A DNA stretch of 57,940 bases from assembly GCA_021604105.1 (NCBI GenBank), contig BQIW01000018.1, positions 1 through 57,940 of the forward strand, in the 5' to 3' direction. A program made the translations under genes and the position numbers. The notes below the pieces were generated by a model. It searched no databases. It was not told where the DNA came from and was given only the letters and a program-made list of their open reading frames with translations. Every line of letters starts with the position of its first letter. Within the stretch, counting starts at the first letter, position 1. Positions 14,736-56,179 of this stretch are shown piece after piece. The DNA is from Nitrospirales bacterium (lineage in GTDB: Bacteria; Nitrospirota; Nitrospiria; Nitrospirales; UBA8639).

Positions 14736-15179
14736 TCACACCCTTTCCGGTGCCGATTCATTTAAAATCAGCCAATAGAGCCCCAGGTTTTGAACCGCTT
14801 GAGAAAACTCTTGAAAGTCCACTGGCTTGCGAACATAACTATTGGCTCCAAGTTGATAGCTTTTCACAATGTCCTGCTCTTCCTTGGACGACGTGAGCAC
14901 CACCACCGGGAGAAACTTCGTCCGGTCATCGGCCCGCAATCGTCGAAGCACTTCCAGCCCATCAATCTTGGGGAGCTTGAGGTCCAGCAGGATAATTTGA
15001 GGCATCTGGCTTAAATCACGACCGGCATGCGCTCCGGTTCCAAATAAATATTCCAATGCCTCTACTCCGTCCCGGGCCACCACAACTTCATTTTTTATGT
15101 TGTTTTTCTTGAGCGCCCGCATCGTTAACTCTTCATCATCGGGATGATCTTCCACTAACAGAATTGCTTTGTTGGTCAT
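14736..15179 (-). CDS. Single-domain response regulator (Rcp1-like)
   Basis: This 147-aa receiver-only protein has the acidic pair in [12 protein letters not shown], the phosphoacceptor Asp in [14 protein letters not shown], the conserved Thr/Ser in VVLTSS and Lys in VRKPVDF. The HPDDEELT and LKLPKIDG wording is that of phytochrome-partner regulators (Rcp1 class), which have no DNA-binding domain and pass phosphate on or bind a partner. The start at 15179 has a GGAGGAG ribosome binding site. An upstream in-frame extension overlaps the kinase gene. It lies directly downstream of the sensor kinase at 15200-16942 and is its probable partner. Confidence 0.92.
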
Positions 15180-15199
15180 CTTCTCCTCCTCCGGTTGTC

Positions 15200-16942
15200 T
15201 TACAAGGTAAAATGAAAGGTCGCGCCTTTGCCCACCACTCCTTCTGCCCAAATTTGACCGCCATGTCGTTGAATAATACGATGCACCGTCGCCAGCCCCA
15301 CCCCCACTCCCGGATATTCCGTATAGGCATGGAGGCGTTGAAAGGCCCCGAAAAGTTTATGCACATAGGTCATATCAAAACCCGCCCCATTGTCGGAGAC
15401 AAAGTAGGCCGCCTGCCCTTTATATTGTCCATAACCGAATTCGATACGGGGGTGAGCTTGCTGCTGGGTAAACTTCCAGGCGTTGCCTATCAAATTTTCT
15501 AAAACCGCCCGAAGCAATTGCGGGTCAGCGGTGGCAAATACGTTATTGGCCACAATACATTCTACCTTGCGGTCCGGTTCCATTTTTTGAAAGTCTTCCA
15601 GAACAGCTCGGGCTACGGCACTCATATCAAATGTTTGAGTATGGATTTCAGCTCGCGTCAACCGGGCCAGATTGAGCATGGCATCGATAAGTTTGGACAT
15701 TCGTTGACTGGCAGTCCGCACTTTATGCAAATAATTTCGTCCTGATTCATCAAGCTTTTCATCATAGTCTTCCAACACGGCCTGACTAAATCCATCGATC
15801 CCCCGCAACGGGGCACGTAAGTCATGGGAGACCGAATAACTAAACGCTTCAAGTTCTTTATTACTCGCCTCCAGTTGCGCCGAGCGCTGGACCAGCTGGG
15901 AATTGAGTTTGCGTATATCCTCCTCAGCCCGTTTCCGCTCTGCCACTTCACGAATGAGTTCCGCATTTGACGCAGCCAACTTCCCCGTTCGCTCTTGGAC
16001 TCGCTTTTCCAGATTATCTTTCGCCTTTCGAAGGGTATCTTCGGCCAATAGTCGATCATGAATTTCCGATTCCAAATGTTTGTTGGCACTTTGCAGTGCG
16101 CCCGTCCGGTCACGAACCTCCTCTTCCAATTCCCTTGCCACCCGTCCGAGCTTTATCACCACTAACCCGAATCCGCCCATCCAAATGACGACCAACATGC
16201 CCATCAATCCATACGTCCCTTGCCAACTCATACCCATGATCGTTTCCAACGAATCAACGGGATACACGACCTCCAACAAGCCTCCCACTTGCCCGATCTG
16301 CCAATCACGCTTTGGACTGTCCGGATGGCTGTTATGACACTCCACACATTCCTTCTGCATCCGATCGGCCTTTACGAAACGGAGGGACTCTCGCCCATCG
16401 ACTTGCTCAAACCGATAAAATGGATCATTTGAATCAGGGTGTTGGGTGAAAAATTTCCACGCCTCTTTCTGGAAATCGTCAGTGAGTCCTCCGGATTTTT
16501 TTTCAGGGTTAAATGGATAGGGGCTCAGTAAATGCAATCGCTCGCCTGGTCGCCCAGCGACCAATCGACGGCCCAGGTCACGACTGAGAACTGCGGGGAG
16601 AGGAATTTCCCCTTGATAGTCCCGATATTCTGCCGAGGCTTTAATTCCCTGGTTATGAAGGCGTTGGACAACCTCGACGGTGTACCATATCCGCATCTCA
16701 TTCAGCGCTCTGGTATAAATATCGGATCCCCGAAAGGCCATGGCCGTCACCATCTGGGTTTTCAATTGTGAAATATGCAAATAAATCACAATGAGACAGA
16801 GCCCAAAAAGCATGGTTAACACCAAAATCGTATGTCGATGTAGGAGCTCCATGGCTCCCAGGATCCTGTTCATACAGGTGCGCCAGAGTCCCAAAACCGA
16901 CCACCGCATTTCTTTACGAGACGTTAACTCAGATACCGACAA
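15200..16942 (-). CDS. Sensor histidine kinase with CxxCH (DUF3365/Tll0287-like) periplasmic domain
   Basis: This 580-aa membrane kinase has a first transmembrane segment at about residues 38-57 and a periplasmic domain with the haem-binding motif CVECH at 199-203 followed by [13 protein letters not shown]. That pattern is typical of DUF3365 (Tll0287-like) haem sensors for redox state or gas. A second transmembrane segment (about 241-265) is followed by a long coiled coil, a HisKA domain with H373 in [10 protein letters not shown] and an HATPase domain resembling bacteriophytochrome-type kinases ([22 protein letters not shown]). The receiver-only regulator 20 bases downstream is its likely phosphate acceptor. 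Covalent haem attachment is inferred from the motif. Confidence 0.92.
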
Positions 16943-17589: not shown

Positions 17590-19914
17590 TCACACGGGAG
17601 ATTGATTTTGTAAGGCGACAGCCATCAAGCTTTCATCCAACTCTGAGACCTTTCCTGAGTCGGTGTCCTCCGCCATCGTGGGTTCCAGTTCCTGATCCTC
17701 GTCATACGTTTGCCGCACATCCAGAATTTCAATGTCTAATTGAGCTTCAGGGTACAATCGCCGCAGGTCCCATTCCGTGATCCACCCGCGCACATACTCG
17801 CGCATCCGGGTACTGGATAATTTCTCTACAGCTGAAACAGGGGGTGGTGTCCAACTATAGGCGGATCCATGAAGCGCTCGAATCCGCTCATATAGGGCAT
17901 CCACCATTGATTCATAGGGACGAATTAATGGTTCGCCTTCCTGTTCGATTAAGCGGATACCCTGGACTGCCTGCAATGCCTGAACATGACTTTCCTCTGT
18001 CGATTCCTCCTGACACATCTGTTCAATTTTTTGAGAATCCTGTTTTTCTTCCAAGACCACGCTTTGAAAATCATCGGTCAAAGCCACAATGGCCCCAATA
18101 GCCGGACAGGTACCCTCGGCTAACACTCCCATCCACCGTGCCACCTCCATATAGGACTTGGTCCGTTGTTTAAAGGAATATCGCCCGATAATTTCCGCTT
18201 CATCAATAAGCAAAATCCACCCTTTATATCCAGCCCCCACCATCAAACGCGAGACAAACTGAAACCGGTTCAGGGCCAAATCCTGACTGGAAATTTTATT
18301 AAATACGTATGGGATTTCCGGCGGACACCCCTGGAGATATTTATTGAGTTGACTGTTACTCAATGGATCTCCCGCCCAATACCGGATCATGCGATGACTT
18401 AGCTCAGGGTCATTAATCATCCGCTCATAGAGATAGAGACTGGCAGCAAACCGAGGATCGCATCCCTGGTCTTTCCGATGCACCCAATCAAATAAATCGG
18501 CATAGTGCGGGCTTTGGAAATTCAGTTCACCGGCTATTTCGGTGAGAGCATCGCCATGTTTACCGGGAACAATGGCATTATTGATGGCTGCACGAAAAAG
18601 GGGCACCAGATTGTACAAAGGTGTTTCCTTACTGATTACAATGGGACTGCAGACAAAGTTCTTCTCCAGTGCTACCTGTTGCAACGCATGAAGAAGATGG
18701 GATTTCCCGCTGCCGAATCCCCCTTCAATTACGAGACCCTTGGTGGGCGTGTCATGAGGAACGTTCCCCTCCATCTGTTGAAGCAGCCTCCTGAATTTTC
18801 CTTCCAGGTCCGGTTGGTGACTTCCAAGCACCTGCACCACGTCACGGTTCGGCACTCCGGATCGCAAGGCTTCCATGGCACGTTGATGTCCAACATCACC
18901 ATTGGCCATTGCCGGTCGATCAGGGTATTCCTTCTTGCCGAGATCATGGGCATCCCCCGCCTGTTGAGAGACAAGACGAATCAGTGCCCCTAAGGGGTTT
19001 TGGTATTGGCGGTCACGGACTTCGTCCCAAATGCGTAATTTCAACGCCTCATACCGATTGAGCCCCCTTCGTTCATCTGTCAAAAATTCATTCGGCACGT
19101 GGACCACCAACAAGAAGCTTTCCAATTCATCCGTCCCATCAATAAACTGACGAAGCATTTCGTAGGCATCTAACGTGCTTGAGACGCCATAATACAAGCC
19201 CTCAGGAGAATCCGGTTTCTTACTGAGCAAACATCGACTCAAGTCCAAGGAAACGACTAACCCTGTTTTCCCCACTAACCGTAACCAACGGCACAACGAA
19301 ACAAACATATACCGGGCATTGGTCCGATTGATTTTCTGAAAAATAAGGGCTTCTTTGAGAGCGGAAATTTGACGAATCTCCCCACCCAGCCACGCCTTGA
19401 CCGGTTCGGTCATAAAGGGGACTTCTGAACCGGAGTCCATTTGCCCCAAACACAATCGGATCATGGCCATACGAAATTCCTGGCACATCTGCGTATCTCG
19501 ATAGATAGCCCGCTCCAACCAACTATTTAAATCACGTCGGAGTAAGGGTTCCGCCCGTTCATTCATCCGGGCGACTCCAGCCATGCAAAATTCTTCCTTG
19601 TTCTCGGGAATTTGGTACCCATTTTCTTGAAGGAGTCGACGAACGAATTGTGAGGCCAGATCATCCCATGGGATGCGTCGAGCAATCTGATGAAAAAACT
19701 TATCCATCATATGAATTTTAGTGTCTTGGGCAGCAACTGAGATGCACGCATATCCCTCCTGTTGAGCCAAGGCAGCCAATTGGTTTTGGTTGTCCTCCCT
19801 TCCCGAAACAGAATCTGTCACCACAAATTTGACCGATGAGCCTCCTTGCCCAATAAATCGTTGAAGGTAATCTTGCCGAAGCGTATGAAACCATTCTTGA
19901 GGTCGTAACTCCAT
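17590..19914 (-). CDS. Tandem BrxC/BrxD-like P-loop ATPase, paralogue A
   Basis: This 774-aa protein is built of two homologous ATPase halves. The C-terminal half (about 341-700) matches the BREX BrxC/BrxD (DUF2791) family: lead-in ALRSGVPNRDVVQVLG, Walker A GGFGSGKS at 398-405, ISKETPLY, Walker B GWILLIDEAE at 565-574 and sensor-like VALTDDF. The N-terminal half (about 14-315) follows the same plan but is degenerate. The GGSSVKFVV strand at 24-32 has no GKS loop after it, the Walker B-like strand reads GLVVSLDLSR without the catalytic Glu, and the FLTDERRGLNRYEALKLR segment keeps the family's sensor/arginine region. An acidic tail ends the protein. AAGGA lies eight bases before the start. 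It is the last gene of an operon with paralogue B. Its substrate is unknown. Confidence 0.88.
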   Translation of the reverse strand: MELRPQEWFHTLRQDYLQRFIGQGGSSVKFVVTDSVSGREDNQNQLAALAQQEGYACISVAAQDTKIHMMDKFFHQIARRIPWDDLASQFVRRLLQENGYQIPENKEEFCMAGVARMNERAEPLLRRDLNSWLERAIYRDTQMCQEFRMAMIRLCLGQMDSGSEVPFMTEPVKAWLGGEIRQISALKEALIFQKINRTNARYMFVSLCRWLRLVGKTGLVVSLDLSRCLLSKKPDSPEGLYYGVSSTLDAYEMLRQFIDGTDELESFLLVVHVPNEFLTDERRGLNRYEALKLRIWDEVRDRQYQNPLGALIRLVSQQAGDAHDLGKKEYPDRPAMANGDVGHQRAMEALRSGVPNRDVVQVLGSHQPDLEGKFRRLLQQMEGNVPHDTPTKGLVIEGGFGSGKSHLLHALQQVALEKNFVCSPIVISKETPLYNLVPLFRAAINNAIVPGKHGDALTEIAGELNFQSPHYADLFDWVHRKDQGCDPRFAASLYLYERMINDPELSHRMIRYWAGDPLSNSQLNKYLQGCPPEIPYVFNKISSQDLALNRFQFVSRLMVGAGYKGWILLIDEAEIIGRYSFKQRTKSYMEVARWMGVLAEGTCPAIGAIVALTDDFQSVVLEEKQDSQKIEQMCQEESTEESHVQALQAVQGIRLIEQEGEPLIRPYESMVDALYERIRALHGSAYSWTPPPVSAVEKLSSTRMREYVRGWITEWDLRRLYPEAQLDIEILDVRQTYDEDQELEPTMAEDTDSGKVSELDESLMAVALQNQSPV

Positions 19915-20093
19915 TGCTCATATCCTTCACAGGTTAGAAAGTCACATGCATACGCAGATGGGGTTTTACGGACTGACGAATAACCAGAGATCTATTCTGA
20001 AAACATGGGTTGCCCCGTCTGGGAACGATGGATTCGACTGGAGATACTCATACGCCAATTTTCCGATGACAACCATTTTGATCAAGGCCCAAA

Positions 20094-22370
20094 CTAGCAC
20101 GACTCGGAAAGTGCCGGATGAAGCCGGTCTTCCTGCTCCCCTTCTAATTCAGAATCCTCCGAATAATCTTGTCGAATTTCCGTTAATTCAATTTCGACTT
20201 TTTGTGTTGGATCAAGACGCGTCAAATCCCATTCGGTAATCCAGCCTTTGACATATTCACGCATCCGAGTGCTGGATAATCGCTCAATTGTTGGGACCTG
20301 AGGTGGTTCCCACCCATACGCCGCGCCATGAAGGCCACGAATTTTATGGTAAATTTCTTCCACAAGCTGATCATAGGGACCGACCAAGGGTATGCGTTCG
20401 CATTCAATGAGCCGCATTCCCTGTTCCGCTTGGCGGGACAGCACCAAATCGGTTTCCGATCCTGATTCTCGCAGCTTTTCTGGCACTTTTTCCCGATCAC
20501 CCTTTTCATCCAGAATCGCACTTTGAAAATCATCCGTGAGCGCCATCACCGCCGCCAATCCGGATTTATAGCCAAGATCTGCAAAGCTGGACGCTTCCAG
20601 GCGGCCCAGCCACCTGGCTAATTCCGCATAGGACTGGGCACGTTGCTTAAAGGAATACCTGCCAATAATTTCTGCCTCGTCGATCAGTAAAATCCAACCG
20701 GAATACCCTGCCGCGATCATGAGACGTGAAACAAATTTAAAGCGTTGCAACGCCATCTCCATGGGTGAGACTCGTTCAAATCGATAGGAAGCACCCGCAT
20801 CACAGGATTTGAGATATCGCTTAATTTCAGCATCGGTCAAGGGGTCCCCTGCCCAAAATCGAATGATCCGGTGACTTAATTCCGGGTCATTCACCATACG
20901 TTCGTACAGAAACACCGAGGCCGCAAACCGCCCATCAATTTCTCCACCCTGACGATGCACCCATTCATAAAAATTTGCGTATTGGGGACTCTTAAAATTC
21001 AAATCCGCTGCCACCTCGGCCAAGACATCTCCTCGTTTTTCGGGGATATGAGCAGACTCAATGGCAGATCGAAACATCAATGCGGGGCTATACAGAGGTG
21101 TTTCCTTACTTATAACGACCTTGCTACACACGAATCTGGATTCCAATGCCATATGCCTCAAGGATTCCAGTAAATGCGATTTCCCCGTCCCAAACCCCCC
21201 TTCAATCAACATTCCTTTTGTGGTCCAACCCTTATGAATGCTGGCCTGCGCGTCCTGCAACATCTGTTGAAATTTGGATTTGACCATCGGCTGTGGACAT
21301 CCAAGCGCTTGGACCACTCCCGGACTCGGGACACCTGCACGCAAGGATTCAATGACCCGTTGATGCTGCACATCATCTTTTCGGTTTCCCACTCTGGCCA
21401 GTAGACTGCACTCGGTAAAGGCTGCGGTCTGATCCGTCAACCTGACCATCGGTGCGAAGGGATTTTGACGGGTTTTATCCCTGACATCATCCCAAATTCG
21501 AAGCTTTAAGGCTTCATACCGATTCAGGCCCAGCCGTTGATCTGAGAGAAAGGCATGTGAGGTGACCACCACGACCAATAGCCCTTCGATTTCATCGCTG
21601 CCATCGATGAATTGTCTCAGCATCTCATAGGCATCCATAACGGCAGAGGGCGAATAATTCAGGGAGGTCACACCGGCTTCCTTGCCGCCTGTAAAGGCTG
21701 AAATATCGATGGTCAGGACCATACCGGGTTTTCCCACCAGGCGGGTCCAATGGGCTAAGGAGACAATGAGGTCACGCGCATTGCTGCGGGTAACCTTTTC
21801 AAAAATTAATAATTTTTTAAGAGTCGCCATTTGTTTCAACTCGCCTCGAAGCCAGGCCTTAATGGCTCCCGACTCTTTAGAGGGACTATCAGGTAATTCC
21901 AACTGCGCTAAACACAACTGGATCATGGCCAGTCGAAATTCACGACTCATGTGAAAATCATGAAACAAGCTCCCTTCCAACCATGCGTTCATTTCCCGGA
22001 GCATCGTGGCTTCATCGCAACTATTGAGAGAGGCCAAAAAAGACCAGCAACATTCCTCCCGCCGGTCAGGGATCTTCCATTGATGCTCTCGAAAGAGATT
22101 TTTGACATACTCGAATGCCAAAGCATCCCAATCAATTTGTCTGGCTATTTCCTTAAACAACAGATCAATGAGTTGAACCTTTGTACAATGGGAATCCGCG
22201 TGTATCGTGACATAGCCCTGCTCCCGTGCTAGCTCCCCCACCCCCACGCTCACCGCTTTGGTATTCTGAGCCTCCTCCACGACCGCAAATTTGACCGCCG
22301 ATCCTCCACGACGAATAAAACCCTGCAGATAGGCGGATTTGAGAACGTTCAACCATTCCTGTGGAGACAT
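20094..22370 (-). CDS. Tandem BrxC/BrxD-like P-loop ATPase, paralogue B
   Basis: This 758-aa protein is closely similar to the downstream gene over its whole length (shared RMREYV-GWITEWDL, EIIGRYSFKQR, QRAG-VP-type linkers). The C-terminal ATPase is intact: GGFGTGKS at 391-398, VISKETPLYSP, Walker B GWILLIDEAE and MALTDDF. The N-terminal half is again a degenerate P-loop domain: RRGGSAVKFAVVEEAQN lacks GKS, and the Walker B-like MVLTIDISAF lacks Glu. AGGA lies about nine bases before the ATG. It is separated from paralogue A by 179 bases and from the 326-aa gene upstream by 80 bases, and all three point the same way. Two such proteins could form a hetero-oligomer. Confidence 0.88.
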   Translation of the reverse strand: MSPQEWLNVLKSAYLQGFIRRGGSAVKFAVVEEAQNTKAVSVGVGELAREQGYVTIHADSHCTKVQLIDLLFKEIARQIDWDALAFEYVKNLFREHQWKIPDRREECCWSFLASLNSCDEATMLREMNAWLEGSLFHDFHMSREFRLAMIQLCLAQLELPDSPSKESGAIKAWLRGELKQMATLKKLLIFEKVTRSNARDLIVSLAHWTRLVGKPGMVLTIDISAFTGGKEAGVTSLNYSPSAVMDAYEMLRQFIDGSDEIEGLLVVVVTSHAFLSDQRLGLNRYEALKLRIWDDVRDKTRQNPFAPMVRLTDQTAAFTECSLLARVGNRKDDVQHQRVIESLRAGVPSPGVVQALGCPQPMVKSKFQQMLQDAQASIHKGWTTKGMLIEGGFGTGKSHLLESLRHMALESRFVCSKVVISKETPLYSPALMFRSAIESAHIPEKRGDVLAEVAADLNFKSPQYANFYEWVHRQGGEIDGRFAASVFLYERMVNDPELSHRIIRFWAGDPLTDAEIKRYLKSCDAGASYRFERVSPMEMALQRFKFVSRLMIAAGYSGWILLIDEAEIIGRYSFKQRAQSYAELARWLGRLEASSFADLGYKSGLAAVMALTDDFQSAILDEKGDREKVPEKLRESGSETDLVLSRQAEQGMRLIECERIPLVGPYDQLVEEIYHKIRGLHGAAYGWEPPQVPTIERLSSTRMREYVKGWITEWDLTRLDPTQKVEIELTEIRQDYSEDSELEGEQEDRLHPALSESC

Positions 22371-22450: not shown

Positions 22451-23431
22451 TTATCCCCCTACAAAGGAAATTCCGTAATAGGTTTTCTCCCGTCCCCCTT
22501 GCGCAATCACGGTTAACGTTTTGGTGGCATCCCGCACGCCGGTACTGGCATGAAAGTTTGCCCGATGATTGTTTTTGGTGGTAATGGTTCCACTTTTATC
22601 CAATAAATAGACATCCCGCCCAAATTCTTGTCTGGTGTATTCATTCGCCTGCCACGGAAGAAGCGTCAGGAGTTGATACAGTTCCAGGAGTGGAATCACC
22701 GTTCCTTTGCCAATGAGGTGCTTCCCTCGACCCGCCACCACAATGGAATAGGCGGTAAAGACCATCTCCAGAAACGTTTGGGGTTTGAATCGAAGGGGTT
22801 TATTTTGAACTTCCTTTAATCGTTTAACCAAGACCGAAGGACGAAGCCGGTTTTCCCGCATTCGGTCAATGGCAACCGCGCGTTCTTTGTGAAGAATGCG
22901 CAATAAGACGGGATAGGAAAATAAATAACCGTCGTGCTCATAGAGATTGACACCCATCTGCTGGGCCGTGGTCAGAAGCTCCTGGCGAAAAGCCTTGCCC
23001 TCCAGATATCCCGCTTCATCAAAATTCAGACGTTCCTGGGTTTTCACAAAGTCACACCCCAGGCTCAGCGTCACCTCCTTGCCTTCGTCCAGTAATTTTC
23101 GCAGATTGACCAAATCGCCCACTTTCGCTGCATCTTTAATTTTTTTAAATGACGCCATCACCTGTTTTGTGGTTTTCACTAATCCCCCGGCCTGCTCTTC
23201 GATATCAGCCAGAGCCTGCTCCAAATTGACGTTTTTCAGGACAGGCTTTGAAGGTGGGGAGGCATCCGGCAACTCCAGCACACCAGTTGCCGAACTCGAC
23301 CCACAGGCTTCTATCGTATTGTCAATTCCTTCGGCACTCATGTCGGTTATCGAGTCCTCTGGTTTGTGGTGAATACAGGAATCGGCGTTAACGAACCGAT
23401 TGGTCGGCGCATACCTGTTCATTCGGTACAT
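22451..23431 (-). CDS. Unrecognised 326-aa protein heading the ATPase operon
   Basis: No family is recognised. The N-terminal 60 residues are Ser/Pro-rich and look disordered. Residues about 65-115 form a predicted coiled coil (LEQALADIEEQAGGL and following). A middle segment reads YEHDGYLFSYPVLLRI and is followed by a basic stretch (ERAVAIDRMRENRLRPSVL). The C-terminal region ends in beta-like KTLTVIAQGG. No transmembrane segment or signal peptide is seen, so it is cytoplasmic. It is first in the operon with paralogues B and A, which suggests an adaptor or regulatory partner of the ATPases. The start is uncertain: 23431 or an internal ATG at 23341. Confidence 0.72.
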   Translation of the reverse strand: MYRMNRYAPTNRFVNADSCIHHKPEDSITDMSAEGIDNTIEACGSSSATGVLELPDASPPSKPVLKNVNLEQALADIEEQAGGLVKTTKQVMASFKKIKDAAKVGDLVNLRKLLDEGKEVTLSLGCDFVKTQERLNFDEAGYLEGKAFRQELLTTAQQMGVNLYEHDGYLFSYPVLLRILHKERAVAIDRMRENRLRPSVLVKRLKEVQNKPLRFKPQTFLEMVFTAYSIVVAGRGKHLIGKGTVIPLLELYQLLTLLPWQANEYTRQEFGRDVYLLDKSGTITTKNNHRANFHASTGVRDATKTLTVIAQGGREKTYYGISFVGG

Positions 23432-50514: not shown

Positions 50515-50883
50515 TTAATGTACTAAAGCCTTTTGGACTGTCTGGAGAAGCTCATCGACAGTAAAGGGTTTTTGCAAGGTACAAATCGGCTGGAATATTG
50601 GGTAAGGGCCTTTCAGCATTTCACCAGATGCGGGAATATTTCCCGTCAGAGTGATCATCGGAATATGAGAAGATTGTTCAAAATCAAGCCCAGGGGATTC
50701 GTGTTCTCTTTCTTCCATCGCTACCACATCCATAATAATTAAGGATGCTTGAAAATTTTCATGATTTTGGAGGCCTTCCTGACAGGACCCTGCAGCCATA
50801 ACCGTATACCCGGCTGTTTCCAATGAAAGAGAAACGGACTCCCTCACCTGGATATCATCATCAATCACCAAAATTCTATTCAT
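50515..50883 (-). CDS. Receiver-domain protein (122 aa)
   Basis: This is a single response-regulator receiver: VIDDDIQVRESV acidic pair, phosphoacceptor Asp in LIIMDVVAME, Thr in MITLTGNI, and Lys in LQKPFTVDEL. After the Asp the usual MP-x-xG loop is replaced by VVAMEEREHESPG, an odd and longer insertion, so phosphorylation dynamics may differ. It is a monocistronic gene with no kinase nearby. Confidence 0.82.
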   Translation of the reverse strand: MNRILVIDDDIQVRESVSLSLETAGYTVMAAGSCQEGLQNHENFQASLIIMDVVAMEEREHESPGLDFEQSSHIPMITLTGNIPASGEMLKGPYPIFQPICTLQKPFTVDELLQTVQKALVH

Positions 50884-51194
50884 GAGCTAACCCAAAAGTG
50901 TTTCACAATTACAAATACTTGTTAGCATGTGGAAAAGACACAGCTACCTTGACTATTTAACGAGCAATTTATGTTCCCTCCTCATTTTAAATCGCCTAAA
51001 TGGCCTGCAAAAAATTTTATCAATAAAAACAACAATATACGACTGTAATTTAGAAATAATATGGTAACCGGCATGAAGGAGAAAACATTCAGTATGCAGG
51101 GATTCCCATTCACTGCTTTTCAAATAATCTGCCTGATGAACTTTTAGAAAGGGTGACTGGCCTTGAAGCCATACGACTACCCCACGAAAACTCC
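50884..51194. other. Intergenic region before the transporter gene
   Basis: Both neighbours are on the minus strand. The stretch is AT-rich (about 50950-51060) and carries no recognisable gene. A frame from 51429 to 50953 runs through it but lies antiparallel in phase to the transporter and has no family resemblance. Confidence 0.35.
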
Positions 51195-52526
51195 TTAAGG
51201 ATTTTGGGAGTGAACAGCAAACTTGCCACTGTTCCTCCATAGCCACCACAGTTGAAATCCGAACCCGGAAAGCATCGCGGCCAAGCCCACATATAATCCG
51301 GTCACTTGCCCATACAGAACTCCGGCCAACAAGAAGATGGAACTTCCAAATAGATACAAACACACAGCTTGGGTAATAATGGAAGTGACACCACGATGAA
51401 CGAACTGACCCTGAAAAAAACTTTCCCATGGACTCAAAGCAGGGAAAATGACCATGAGCCAGAGCGCTGTCGAAGCCAACACGGTCAACTCAGGAGTCAG
51501 AGCCGCGCCCCATTCAAACCAGAACGTGGAGAGAGGAGTAGCGGCAATCATAAACAGGATTCCGCTCGTACCGATTGAAACCATCGTCACAAATTTCCTC
51601 AGAGGGACCAGAAAATGAGGTCGGTCATACAGGGCAACCACCACCTCCTGCATCGCCAATCCTCCACTCCGGAATACAAACGAGAGCCCTCCTAACACTG
51701 GCCACACAGCCAAGGATTCTATAGCGTTTGGCATTCGACTGATGGCCGCACTGACAATCGGTAAATTTCCAAGGGAAATGAGTGGAGTAAATGCGAGAGG
51801 CCAATAAAACAGGCTTAATTGACTCAGCGTGAGAAGCGATGGATGGGCAGGACTCATTTTAAGATTGCTGAGGATCGGACGCACGAAAAGCAGAATAAAG
51901 CCAGCCTCGACCATTGCCCCGGAAGACATGGCGACCGTCGCCACAACAATACCCGGAAAACTCTGGAGAACTAATCCGCTCAATAGGACGGCACTACTTA
52001 CGAATAAACGGACCAAGGTTCCCAGTCCAATCAGGCGCGTCTGCCCCGCCCGAATCACCACACCCTGAAAAAACCTTCTCACCGCAATCGAGAGCGTCCA
52101 TGGCGTCATGCATTGAAGACCGATTCTGGCCGGTTCTACAATGATATCGGGTACACCTAATACGTCTTGGACGATCATCCCGTACACCGGAGTAAAAGCC
52201 ACCACGACATGAACGACTGTCAGAAGACTTCCCAAAGTCACAATGAAATTTCGAATAAGCCGATAGGCCAACCAATCTTTGCATAAGGCGGTAGAGGCAA
52301 CCAGAATCATAATGACGGGGGCCTCAATCAACAATGAGAGAGGAAAAACCACTCCACCATAGGCTGCTAAATGGACCTCAGGATCCCCCAGGCGAGAAAC
52401 CGTGGCCGTGACAAGTGGAAACTCCAAACCCATGAGCATCCAACTCGCGGCCAATGGCCACCACATGCGAAAAATCGTGAAGAAGGGAGAAGAAGGGACG
52501 AGGACAACCGGTGAGTTAGCAGCCAC
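51195..52526 (-). CDS. MATE/ANKH-like membrane transporter
   Basis: This 443-aa integral membrane protein has about 12 hydrophobic segments. The opening (RMWWPLAASWMLMGLEFPLV, then SRLGDPEVHLAAYGGVVFPL) resembles the ANKH/progressive-ankylosis branch of the MATE-related multidrug/oligosaccharidyl-lipid flippase superfamily rather than NorM-type MATE pumps. AAYG and IEAPVIMILV follow the same branch's first repeat. The substrate is unknown (phosphate/pyrophosphate or citrate export in animal ANKH). It lies 215 bases downstream of ATPase paralogue C on the same strand. Confidence 0.78.
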   Translation of the reverse strand: MAANSPVVLVPSSPFFTIFRMWWPLAASWMLMGLEFPLVTATVSRLGDPEVHLAAYGGVVFPLSLLIEAPVIMILVASTALCKDWLAYRLIRNFIVTLGSLLTVVHVVVAFTPVYGMIVQDVLGVPDIIVEPARIGLQCMTPWTLSIAVRRFFQGVVIRAGQTRLIGLGTLVRLFVSSAVLLSGLVLQSFPGIVVATVAMSSGAMVEAGFILLFVRPILSNLKMSPAHPSLLTLSQLSLFYWPLAFTPLISLGNLPIVSAAISRMPNAIESLAVWPVLGGLSFVFRSGGLAMQEVVVALYDRPHFLVPLRKFVTMVSIGTSGILFMIAATPLSTFWFEWGAALTPELTVLASTALWLMVIFPALSPWESFFQGQFVHRGVTSIITQAVCLYLFGSSIFLLAGVLYGQVTGLYVGLAAMLSGFGFQLWWLWRNSGKFAVHSQNP

Positions 52527-52741: not shown

Positions 52742-55327
52742 TTACAAGGAAGAATTGGAAGGATTAGTGGAGGAGTGAGATTCACCCTGAATCGCATGGG
52801 CAACGAATTCCTGATCTTCAGGCACTCCCTCTGTAGCAGACTCGGATTCCGAAGCAAAACGGCCCGCATGGCTTTCCTCCGGACATTCTTGAGGGGCTTC
52901 CTCTTCCTGGATGTCTTCTTGATCGACGCAAGACGGCTTCCATGTCGAGGCCTCTATTTCACATTCTTCTCCGGGATAGAAACGAAGGGAATCCCAATGC
53001 GTCACCCAACTCTTCACGTATTTCCGCATACTGGTTCCTGGGATTATTTGGGCCGGACCATTTGCGGCATTTTCCCACATATGCCACCCATGCCCTTTCA
53101 GATGAAGCGATCGAATCGTCTGATGTGCATCTTGAATAATGTCGTTCGGTGGCTGTCCAAGAGGAATACGTTGGGACTCCAATAAGCCCATGCCTTTCTC
53201 CGCCTTATCGGCTAGCATCCGTTCGGCTTCCGTATTTCTGGCTCGAAGTTTCTCCAAGAGTTTAACCTTGTCACCTTTTTTCTCTAAGACCTCTTCTCGA
53301 AAGTCATTGGTTAATGCCAGCACGGCACCCAACCCCGGCAAAGAAGGACCGCCATCTAAATTCATGAGGCGTGACACTTCGGCATAGGATTTCGCCCGCT
53401 GATTCACCGAATATCGGCCAATCAGTTCGGCTTCATCAATCAGCAGAATCCAGCCAGCATATCCAGCGGCTTGCATCAGACGAGCCGCAAACTGAAAGCG
53501 CTGAAGCGCCAATTCTGCACCAGATATTTTTTTAAAGGCATACCGCTCTCCAAATCCGGCCTCTTGCAGGTACCTTTTTAAATCGCCCACCCCGATGGGG
53601 TCTCCCGTCCAAAATCGAGTCATCCGGTTACCCACCTCCATATCGGAGCTCAATCGTTCATACAGCATCAACGTCGCCGCAAACCTGGCATCAATCTGAC
53701 TCTCCGGATTATTCACCCACGTCACAAGATCCTTATATCGCGGTTCCCAGACATCACATTGACCCGCGATTTCCGCGAACACTTCCCCTCGTTTATCTGG
53801 GATCACCGCAGCTTCGATCGCCGAATAATACAACCGGACTGGATGATACAGAGGCGTTTCCTTACTGATCACAATCCTGCTGCAGATGAAATTGGCATCC
53901 AGCGCCAGATTTTGGAGATACCCCAGGATATGCGATTTGCCACTACCAAACTCCCCCTCGATCACCATGCCACGGGGACACGGTCCCGTCATAATATTTT
54001 GCTGTGTGGCCTCTAATAATCGCCGAAAACGTCCCTCCACCTCTGGCTGAAGACATCCAAGCGTCGTCACCACATGCCGGTTCGGAACCCCAGCCCGAAG
54101 GCCCTCAATGACACGACGGGCTTCTTCATCAGGCACCATTCTCCTCGGAGTGGGGGCGGGAACATCATGCGTTCCTTCCGGAACCGGCTCATGGCGATTT
54201 TGAATCCGGACCAACGATGCCAGTGGATTCTGGCGGTATTTCGGGCGAACGTCATCCCATACGCGCAATTTCAACGCTTCGTACCGATTCACGCCACGGC
54301 GGGAATCGGTCAGGAACTCTTGTGGAGCCATGACCACCATCAGCAAGCCTTCCATCTCATCAGCCGAATCAATAAATTGACGAAGCAATTCATACAAATC
54401 CATGGTGGCTGAAGGAGAAAATGACAGAGAGCCATCATTCAGCAAGGCATCTTTTTTCTTAAAATACCGAGAGATATCGAGGGAAAGAATGAGGCCTCCC
54501 TGTCCCGTTAAACGAAGCCAGCGTGTTAAGGAAGACAGCATATACCGTGCATTATGACGCGAGATTTTTTGATAGATGAGAGCCTTTTTGACTCCAGTCA
54601 CCAGTCGAAGGTCTCCACACAACCACTCTTTCACGGCTGTGGCCAAGACACGATCGGAATCCCCGGCATCCAACTGAGCCATGCACAACCTGATCATCGC
54701 CATGCGAAATTCACGGCACAGTCCCCAATCGCCTTCAATCGCTTTTTCCATCCATGTTTGAATATCCCGGCGGAGCATCGGCTCCTTCCGTTCATTCATC
54801 ATCGCAACCTGCCGCAATGAGAATTCTTGTCGGTTTGAAGGAATTTGATGCCCATGTTCTTCGAGCAACCTTTGAAGAAAGCGATAGGCGAGTTCATCCC
54901 AATCTATTTGTTTGGCAATTTTTTGAAACAGTCGCTCGACCATGTGGGCTTTTGTAAATCGCGCATCAACTTTTGCCAACACATATCCTTCACGATTGGC
55001 CAGTCTCTCCAATTCTTGTTGACAGGTTTTCAATACGTCTTCACCAGGGAACACGGCAAATTTGACCGCTCCACCCCCTTCACGGACGAACGTTCCAAGA
55101 TATTCACGGTGAAGAATGCCCAGCCATTCGCAGAGAGCCAGATTAAATCGTGGTTCCTCCTCGGAGTGAATTTTGTTTTTTGGCGATGGCTTCAAATGTG
55201 ACTGATGTGGTTGTGCCCCTTCCGACCCGTCCGGACGTGAGTCAGTGAGCAAAAAAGAGGAGGAAGGGACACCTTCTTCTGTTCTCACGGACTGAAGACG
55301 ATTTAAGGCCTCAATTAATTTGCTCAT
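52742..55327 (-). CDS. Tandem BrxC/BrxD-like P-loop ATPase, paralogue C
   Basis: This 861-aa protein has the same two-half layout as the pair at 17.6-22.4 kb: a degenerate N-terminal P-loop domain (GGGAVKFAVFPGED without GKS; Walker B-like LILSLDISRY without Glu; FLTDSRRGVNRYEALKLR) and an intact C-terminal ATPase (GEFGSGKS near 458-465, VISKETPLYHP, WILLIDEAELIGRYS, VLALTNDF). It adds a Ser/Pro-rich N-terminal extension of about 75 residues opening MSKLIEALNRLQ, and a Glu-rich tail. The ATG at 55327 has AAGGAACC upstream; an in-frame reading from 55378 is less likely. It follows the DUF6499-like gene on the same strand. Confidence 0.88.
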   Translation of the reverse strand: MSKLIEALNRLQSVRTEEGVPSSSFLLTDSRPDGSEGAQPHQSHLKPSPKNKIHSEEEPRFNLALCEWLGILHREYLGTFVREGGGAVKFAVFPGEDVLKTCQQELERLANREGYVLAKVDARFTKAHMVERLFQKIAKQIDWDELAYRFLQRLLEEHGHQIPSNRQEFSLRQVAMMNERKEPMLRRDIQTWMEKAIEGDWGLCREFRMAMIRLCMAQLDAGDSDRVLATAVKEWLCGDLRLVTGVKKALIYQKISRHNARYMLSSLTRWLRLTGQGGLILSLDISRYFKKKDALLNDGSLSFSPSATMDLYELLRQFIDSADEMEGLLMVVMAPQEFLTDSRRGVNRYEALKLRVWDDVRPKYRQNPLASLVRIQNRHEPVPEGTHDVPAPTPRRMVPDEEARRVIEGLRAGVPNRHVVTTLGCLQPEVEGRFRRLLEATQQNIMTGPCPRGMVIEGEFGSGKSHILGYLQNLALDANFICSRIVISKETPLYHPVRLYYSAIEAAVIPDKRGEVFAEIAGQCDVWEPRYKDLVTWVNNPESQIDARFAATLMLYERLSSDMEVGNRMTRFWTGDPIGVGDLKRYLQEAGFGERYAFKKISGAELALQRFQFAARLMQAAGYAGWILLIDEAELIGRYSVNQRAKSYAEVSRLMNLDGGPSLPGLGAVLALTNDFREEVLEKKGDKVKLLEKLRARNTEAERMLADKAEKGMGLLESQRIPLGQPPNDIIQDAHQTIRSLHLKGHGWHMWENAANGPAQIIPGTSMRKYVKSWVTHWDSLRFYPGEECEIEASTWKPSCVDQEDIQEEEAPQECPEESHAGRFASESESATEGVPEDQEFVAHAIQGESHSSTNPSNSSL

Positions 55328-55438
55328 CCTACGGTTCCTTCCCTCATGTACATTCTGAGTTGTTCGGACCTCCACCACTCCACGCCTGATTCCATGCCCA
55401 AAAACATACTCTGACCGGCTCTCTTACCTTTGGATCCC

Positions 55439-56179
55439 TTACACAGGAAAATGCACACTGATTTGACAGGCACGTTTATACAATTGATTGGCTCTCGCTT
55501 CCGCTATTTCATCATCTTGTAGATGGAATAAGATTCGTCCGATTTCATGAAATGGCACGCCGAGCTCGACGGCATCCAACACGCGGAGATACATCGGCCA
55601 TTCATCACGACATTTTCGCCGTTCAAGTTTTCGACCGACTTGATGTTTTTGCCATTCCATAAGATCCGCCTTAACTTTTTCAATTTGAGCCGCCAACGGC
55701 TTTTTCAGATCAAATACGGCCGCCATTCGCCATTCCGACAAACACAAGGAGACTTCTTCCCCCCCCCCCAACCAATCCGGTCCTTGTCCGAAATAGATCC
55801 GACCGTAATTCGAATCAAATGACAACATCCAGGGCTTGGCAATTGATGGATTCGGAAGGCCACTGAGATGATATTTTTCTAATGAATTCGGCATTCGAGC
55901 CTTAAATGCCGGGTGATCCGGGGTAAAAACTTTTTTGCGATACCGAGTGGGATACTGAGGATCCTTGGCACAGGACAGATCAAAATCGTATGTTTGCCAG
56001 CAATGAAGCTCCCAATCCTTCCGGTAATCTGCACGCCGACGGAGAAACTCCCACCGCCAAAATGTATCGTTTAAACTCTGGGCGCAGGGATAGGTATCCT
56101 CACTCTGCCAGTTGGGTTCGGCCTCTAACACTCGGGGATGCCCGTGCATTTCCTTGGGCGGTCGTTTACTGTTCAACAT
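55439..56179 (-). CDS. DUF6499/DUF2285-like regulator with a coding poly-C tract
   Basis: This 246-aa protein is cytoplasmic. The N-terminal region WRWEFLRRRADYRKDWELH resembles the DUF6499 'transcriptional regulator' domain (usual AWEFLRRNPDYRADW) and the C-terminal region YLRVLDAVELGVPFHEIGRI resembles the DUF2285 DNA-binding helix-turn-helix (usual LRALDARLAGASYREIA), as in regulators of integrative elements. The middle contains DWLGGGEEVS, coded across an 11-base C/G run at 55759-55769. It lies 111 bases upstream of ATPase paralogue C and points the same way, so it may regulate or partner it. The assignment is by eye. Confidence 0.7.
   Translation of the reverse strand: MLNSKRPPKEMHGHPRVLEAEPNWQSEDTYPCAQSLNDTFWRWEFLRRRADYRKDWELHCWQTYDFDLSCAKDPQYPTRYRKKVFTPDHPAFKARMPNSLEKYHLSGLPNPSIAKPWMLSFDSNYGRIYFGQGPDWLGGGEEVSLCLSEWRMAAVFDLKKPLAAQIEKVKADLMEWQKHQVGRKLERRKCRDEWPMYLRVLDAVELGVPFHEIGRILFHLQDDEIAEARANQLYKRACQISVHFPV
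55759..55769. repeat. 11-base C homopolymer inside the DUF6499/DUF2285-like gene
   Basis: Eleven consecutive C on the plus strand encode Leu-Gly-Gly-Gly-Glu on the minus strand. Slippage by one or two bases would shift the frame after about residue 142 and truncate the C-terminal DUF2285-like domain. Such tracts are typical phase-variation sites; the assembly could also have miscounted it. Confidence 0.75.

What the first reader, a model, noticed from the sequence alone, without database searches (positions are those of the whole stretch)
17590..22370. Two adjacent paralogues of a BrxC/BrxD-type ATPase with a dead N-terminal P-loop half
Seen: both proteins keep an intact C-terminal ATPase (GGFG[ST]GKS, IDEAE) of the BREX BrxC/BrxD (DUF2791) family, preceded by a homologous half that has lost GKS and the Walker B Glu but keeps the surrounding strands and the sensor-like FL-D-RGLNRYEALKLR segment. 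Known: BrxC and BrxD are phage-defence ATPases. Inference: an active/pseudo-ATPase fusion, duplicated, suggests an oligomeric machine. No PglX, PglZ, BrxA, BrxB or BrxL is nearby, so it may be a new or derived system, possibly not defence at all.
Basis: partly seen in the sequence, partly recalled or inferred. Interest (0 to 1): 0.8.

Follow-up and report, generated by a model that had tools for sequence, protein, structure and literature searches.

The report
Fused dead-plus-active BrxD-like ATPases, triplicated
Two neighbouring bacterial genes (and a third copy nearby) each encode a broken ATPase fused to a working one; elsewhere the two halves are separate genes in an apparently undescribed five-gene operon with a DNA helicase, so this looks like a possible phage-defence machine that one lineage of Nitrospirota has stripped down, fused and kept as standard equipment.

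Summary
Both proteins carry a PF10923 (BrxC/BrxD) half without Walker A Lys or Walker B Glu, followed by an intact half. In Bacillota, Chloroflexota, Actinomycetota and a gammaproteobacterium the halves are two adjacent genes, mostly within a compact operon: c1 - dead ATPase - active ATPase - c46 - SNF2 helicase (one with an Mrr nuclease). c1 and c46 match nothing in PADLOC. Searching with c46 alone recovered the same arrangement in 4 of 4 new loci. The fusion arose once (100/100), inside a Nitrospirota family. There c46 and the operon's helicase are gone, and the gene exists in three copies under purifying selection throughout the genus. PglZ and BrxC are absent from the genome. The predicted fold of the active half is closest to BrxC, TnsC and Orc/Cdc6. 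Solved BrxB-BrxC complexes, where dead BrxB supplies an arginine to BrxC's ATP site, suggest the mechanism: the dead half caps and completes the active site. Not BREX; a new variant of an ORC/Cdc6-type ATPase switch. Its cellular role is undemonstrated.

The parts
20094..22370 (-). Paralogue B, 758 aa: dead N-half (residues 1 to ~330) fused to active C-half (~331 to 758)
17590..19914 (-). Paralogue A, 774 aa, same architecture
52742..55378 (-).
22451..23431 (-). c1: partner protein, long helical hairpin plus an alpha/beta part without a known match; start probably 23338 (orthologues begin there); directly upstream of B
22281..22307 (-). B residues 22-30 GGSAVKFAV: degenerate P-loop region of the N-half (GG and K27 invariant, no GKS)
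21699..21722 (-). B residues 217-224 MVLTIDIS: degenerate Walker B strand of the N-half (Asp kept, Glu lost)
21477..21542 (-). B residues 277-298 after strand 4 of the N-half, R291 invariant in 47/47: candidate arginine-finger region
   Evidence: analogy with BrxB R182
21174..21200 (-). B residues 391-399 GGFGTGKSH: intact Walker A of the C-half
20670..20693 (-). B residues 560-567 ILLIDEAE: intact Walker B of the C-half
15200..16942 (-). Context: histidine kinase with Tll0287-like sensor domain and a CVECH (haem c type) motif, syntenic with A-type copies across genera
14736..15251 (-). Context: response regulator next to that kinase
51195..52526 (-). Context: c8, 443-aa protein without a Pfam match, syntenic with paralogue C across genera

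Best explanation
A, B and C are ORC/Cdc6-type AAA+ ATPases in which an old pair of separate subunits, one catalytically dead and one active, has been joined into one chain. Mechanism, inferred: the C-half binds and hydrolyses ATP; the dead N-half docks on an active half, supplies a trans-acting arginine (candidate R291) to its ATP site and limits or shapes oligomerisation on DNA, as dead BrxB does to BrxC. In the five-gene operon of other phyla (c1, dead ATPase, active ATPase, c46, SNF2 helicase with or without Mrr nuclease) this ATP-controlled assembly would recognise foreign DNA and recruit the SNF2 translocase, as proposed for BrxD with BrxHI. In this Nitrospirota lineage the halves fused once, the operon's helicase and c46 are gone, and the fused gene was multiplied (B and A next to c1, C elsewhere) and fixed as a core function: a DNA-associated ATPase switch retained from a probable defence system.
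For: Shown: dead and active motifs in 47/47 sequences from five phyla; separate N and C genes in a tight operon, gaps mostly under 30 bp; an independent search with c46 gave c1-N-C-c46 in 4/4 new loci, three with the SNF2 gene and one cut by the contig end; one fusion, 100/100, with A, B and C each following the lineage; SNF2 helicase with Mrr in L050; the C-half of the model (pLDDT 87.7) resembles BrxC (9zll, Z 10.9, 299 residues, rmsd 5.2), TnsC and archaeal Orc1/Cdc6 (Z 10.2-10.5); a family profile picks BrxC and DnaI-type helicase loaders among solved chains, weakly (E 0.009-0.016); purifying selection on the dead half too (dN/dS 0.08-0.24); c46 absent from 16 genus genomes (positive control). 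Precedent: BrxB R182 completes the BrxC ATP site and blocks further BrxC binding (PMC13326643); BrxD is proposed to load or activate BrxHI (PMC12839542). Defence-type genes beside 4 split loci.
Against: No experiment ties any member to phage or DNA. The arginine-finger role of R291 rests on position and conservation; no complex was modelled. Flanks of the loci found through c46 look neutral, and no relative was found on plasmids, phages or viral contigs. Some split loci lack c46 or the helicase (L051, L055, L067, L069). The N-half was barely covered by the structure comparison.
Confidence: 0.5

Rival explanations
1. Housekeeping DNA ATPase: the fused proteins, and perhaps the split operon, serve replication, repair or chromosome organisation (helicase loader or remodeler) and never were an immune system.
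For: Core and vertically inherited in the genus, three copies at constant spacing; neutral flanks of independently found split loci; absent from plasmids, phages and viral contigs; weak likeness to DnaI-type loaders.
Against: The split form is sporadic: 8 of 400 Chloroflexota genomes and 3 of 14 genomes of a sister genus, unlike a replication factor; it crosses five phyla; 4 loci lie beside restriction or helicase defence genes; the helicase can carry an Mrr nuclease.
Confidence: 0.25
2. Core-genome immunity: A, B, C and c1 are still an anti-phage or anti-plasmid system in Nitrospirota, working with a different effector in trans (for example a ~1190-aa SNF2 protein).
For: Purifying selection with active motifs; such an SNF2 protein is in all eight fused-form genomes first searched.
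Against: That SNF2 protein is also common in Nitrospirota without the ATPases and was not found in one genome with them (G055), so it is not a specific partner; fixed triplicate retention in a whole genus is unusual for defence genes.
Confidence: 0.2
3. Remnant of a BREX or Shango locus.
For: Same Pfam family; best PADLOC matches are BrxD and SngB.
Against: No PglZ or BrxC in the genome, PglZ over its cut-off in only 2 of 12 split-form genomes, BrxD model far under its cut-off, consistent own partners instead.
Confidence: 0.05

Closest known systems
BrxB-BrxC(-PglZ) of type I BREX (PMC13326643; PDB 9zll)
   Same: An inactive AAA+-like protein docks on an active ORC/Cdc6-type ATPase; best fold match of the C-half (Z 10.9).
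   Different: BrxC is a ~1200-aa protein with wHTH and other domains and BrxB a different inactive family; no PglZ or BrxC here; the dead subunit here belongs to the same Pfam family as the active one.
BrxD with BrxHI helicase of type II BREX (PMC12839542)
   Same: Same Pfam family PF10923; ORC/Cdc6 ATPase beside an SF2 helicase gene.
   Different: BrxD is one active ~440-aa ATPase; here a dead/active pair, an SNF2 helicase, and c1 and c46; scores far under the BrxD cut-off.
Shango (SngABC)
   Same: SngB is a weak PADLOC match (E 1.8e-12 and 5.1e-14); ATPase plus helicase logic.
   Different: No TerB-type SngA recognised in the operon; dead/active pair; helicase closest to ZorD and DpdE.
Paired Orc/Cdc6 proteins, the second with a disrupted Walker B, with a KAP NTPase (mobile neighbourhoods in PMC10853773)
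   Same: Two ORC/Cdc6 proteins, one impaired, in a presumed conflict system.
   Different: There the impaired copy keeps Walker A; partners differ; not compared by sequence here.
Archaeal Orc1/Cdc6; TnsC
   Same: Fold of the AAA+ core (Z 9.3-10.5).
   Different: No wHTH domain evident; no origin or transposon context.

Membership tests
PF10923 BrxC/BrxD superfamily | Pfam score over the gathering cut-off (22.2 bits) | tested here: met
   116, 109 and 108 bits; both halves separately in split forms
BrxD (NF033438 equivalog) | Score over the curated cut-off of 350 bits | tested here: not met
   103 and 72 bits
BREX | PglZ in the genome or locus | tested here: not met
   None in the own genome, 96% complete
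BREX | Full-length BrxC/PglY ATPase | tested here: not met
   None in the own genome
BREX | PglX-type methyltransferase | not tested
   None among the neighbouring genes scanned; no genome-wide search
Shango | SngB ATPase close to the family profile | tested here: inconclusive
   Weak partial matches only
Shango | TerB-domain SngA in the operon | tested here: not met
   c1 and c46 of two representatives have no Pfam or PADLOC family match; the window c1 has none either
Shango | SngC-type helicase in the operon | tested here: inconclusive
   Operon helicase is SNF2, best PADLOC matches ZorD and DpdE; SngC not among the 25 best shown
ORC/Cdc6-type AAA+ | AAA+ core with Walker A, Walker B and C-terminal helical lid, Orc/Cdc6-like fold | tested here: met
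   Motifs 47/47, invariant R704 in the C-terminal bundle; fold matches. Sensor-2 assignment of R704 is inference
Anti-phage defence system | Shown protection against phage or plasmid | not testable with these tools
   Needs experiment

The most novel reading that the evidence does not exclude
c1 - dead ATPase - active ATPase - c46 - SNF2 helicase is an undescribed five-gene immune system found in several phyla, and one Nitrospirota lineage has domesticated its ATPase switch: it fused the dead and active subunits once, lost the helicase, multiplied the gene to three and fixed it as a core chromosomal function.
Probability: 0.4. Interest if true: 0.78.

Novelty: new variant of a known kind. Interest (0 to 1): 0.6.

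Why it matters
It is a natural experiment on how a pseudo-ATPase and its active partner work together: the same two subunits exist apart (in a helicase operon) and fused (without it), with a single fusion on the tree. BrxB-BrxC structures make the mechanism directly testable. If the domestication reading holds, it documents a route from a probable sporadic defence module to a core bacterial function. The five-gene operon itself appears unreported and is a ready candidate for defence assays.

Tried and rejected
BREX remnant: PglZ and BrxC absent. The ~1190-aa Nitrospirota SNF2 protein as replacement helicase: also found without the ATPases. Mobile-element carriage: nothing on plasmids, phages or viral contigs, though only one C-half and the c46 alignment were used as queries. 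Fold of c1: only its coiled-coil hairpin matched; the rest stays unassigned. Direct hhalign of N against C was weak; homology rests on both matching PF10923. Whole-chain Foldseek of B was poor, probably because of its two domains. First-pass ORF clusters c2, c20, c30 and c47 turned out to be antisense frames of these genes. Promoter and terminator scan at chance level. Papers: no account of the pair, the fusion or the operon found in the held library; most subscription papers and bioRxiv preprints are not held.

Full report
The window is one whole contig (G000:C18) of a 4.9-Mb, 96% complete assembly whose nearest relatives are Nitrospirota, order Nitrospirales (titles). ORFs A (17590-19914, minus) and B (20094-22370, minus) are intact, same-strand and 49% identical. 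Both match PF10923 in three stretches.

The dead half is real. In 47 aligned sequences the N-half has an invariant GG...K signature (G22, G23, K27) where a P-loop would be, but never GKS; its Walker B strand keeps Asp but not Glu; its R195, R199, R252 and R291 are invariant. The C-half has G.FG[STA]GKSH and DE.E in every sequence, and invariant R704 and R718 in the last helices. Where the halves are separate proteins, each matches PF10923 on its own. The order of secondary structure in the model of B is alike in both halves up to strand 4 (H3-18, E24-31, H36-50, E54-59 ... E217-222, E264-271 against H361-380, E387-390, H397-410, E414-419 ... E559-564, E605-611), after which only the C-half has the long helical bundle. 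Direct profile comparison of the halves is weak, so homology rests mainly on the shared Pfam family.

Relatives outside the lineage changed the picture. A scan of named genomes with the A/B/C alignment found 50 loci. In those from Bacillota, Chloroflexota, Actinomycetota, a gammaproteobacterium and others, N and C are two genes, ~320 and ~420 aa, back to back. Upstream is c1 (~265-290 aa); downstream, in most, c46 (~190 aa) and an SNF2 helicase. c1 and c46 match nothing in Pfam or PADLOC in the two representatives scanned; the helicase resembles ZorD and DpdE, and in L050 ends in an Mrr nuclease domain. Independent test: searching 400 Chloroflexota genomes with c46 alone gave 8 hits; the four not known before all have c1-N-C-c46 in order, three with the helicase and one with the contig ending there. 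So the operon is real and sporadic. Five-gene loci in hand: L029, L042, L046, L047, L049, L050, L052, L083, L084, L085.

Defence context is mixed. L047 has DUF499, a DUF1156 methyltransferase and a PLD-helicase directly upstream; L046 a DpdF/GajB-like helicase protein; L050 a GmrSD gene and a ZacB-like gene; L049 a helicase. But the flanks scanned around loci found through c46 are metabolic or transport genes, one with an integrase.

History in Nitrospirota. On a tree of 47 proteins all 32 fused proteins form one side of a branch with 100/100 support, next to the Bacillota split forms; A, B and C are separate clades, each following the lineage (the root is not fixed and some split rows are long). 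Each of the 20 other genomes of the genus has fused copies, three in the better assemblies. The distance from B to C is 30.4 kb here and 30.6-32.4 kb in other contiguous genomes (coordinates). In the sister genus g4, 3 of 14 genomes carry instead the split form, from a distant branch. c46 is absent from the 16 genus genomes searched (positive control). The only strong SNF2 match is a ~1190-aa protein also common in relatives without the ATPases. c1 is single-copy and tracks A/B: four genomes with a single fused gene (three of them shown to be the C type) lack it (G058-G061). dN/dS of A, B and C against close orthologues is 0.055-0.19, and 0.08-0.24 for the dead half: all copies are maintained.

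Mechanism. The model of B (pLDDT 87.7, pTM 0.87) matches BrxC, TnsC and archaeal Orc1/Cdc6 over residues ~325-733 (Z 10-11, rmsd 3.7-5.2). In the solved BREX complex an inactive BrxB takes the place of a second BrxC, contributes R182 to BrxC's ATP site and excludes a further BrxC (PMC13326643). The N-half keeps an invariant arginine (R291) shortly after its fourth strand. I therefore infer that the N-half is a capping subunit that completes a C-half ATP site and limits ring growth, and that in the operon this ATP-controlled assembly delivers the SNF2 helicase to DNA, as proposed for BrxD and BrxHI (PMC12839542). Shown by computation: motifs, predicted fold, operon, fusion history, selection. 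Inferred: arginine donation, DNA binding, helicase recruitment, defence origin, new role in Nitrospirota.

Membership. The proteins belong to PF10923 and to the ORC/Cdc6-type AAA+ group. They are not BrxD (far below the cut-off) and the locus is not BREX (no PglZ, no BrxC). It may work like the BrxB-BrxC pair; that is a likeness, not membership.

Verdict.

Noticed in passing
window 14736-16942: Histidine kinase with Tll0287-like sensor domain and a CVECH motif plus response regulator, kept next to A-type fused copies across several genera; a 647-bp gap separates it from A, so a functional link is open.
   Followed up: partly
window 50515-52526: c8 (443 aa, no Pfam match) and a response-regulator-like protein are syntenic with paralogue C across genera.
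   Followed up: partly
window 55439-56179: Gene upstream of C with a marginal PF20109 (regulator-like) match, kept in the genus but not seen upstream of C in genus g5.
   Followed up: partly
L067:3445-6677, L069:3252-6445: Split c1-N-C loci of the sister genus show no c46 or SNF2 gene, but both sit beside a pair of DEAD/DSHCT helicase genes on the other strand: a possible replacement helicase.
   Followed up: no
L047:2-9109: DUF499 - DUF1156 methyltransferase - PLD/SNF2 helicase (BREX-related type) ends 3 bp before c1 of the five-gene operon, as if one transcript.
   Followed up: partly
L020:12398-14712: Copy A lies in two overlapping reading frames in this assembly: either a frameshift or an assembly error.
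   Followed up: no
G058-G061 (L070, L071, L079): These genomes of genus g5 have a single fused gene (C type where checked) and no c1; G024 of the same genus keeps A, B, C and c1.
   Followed up: partly
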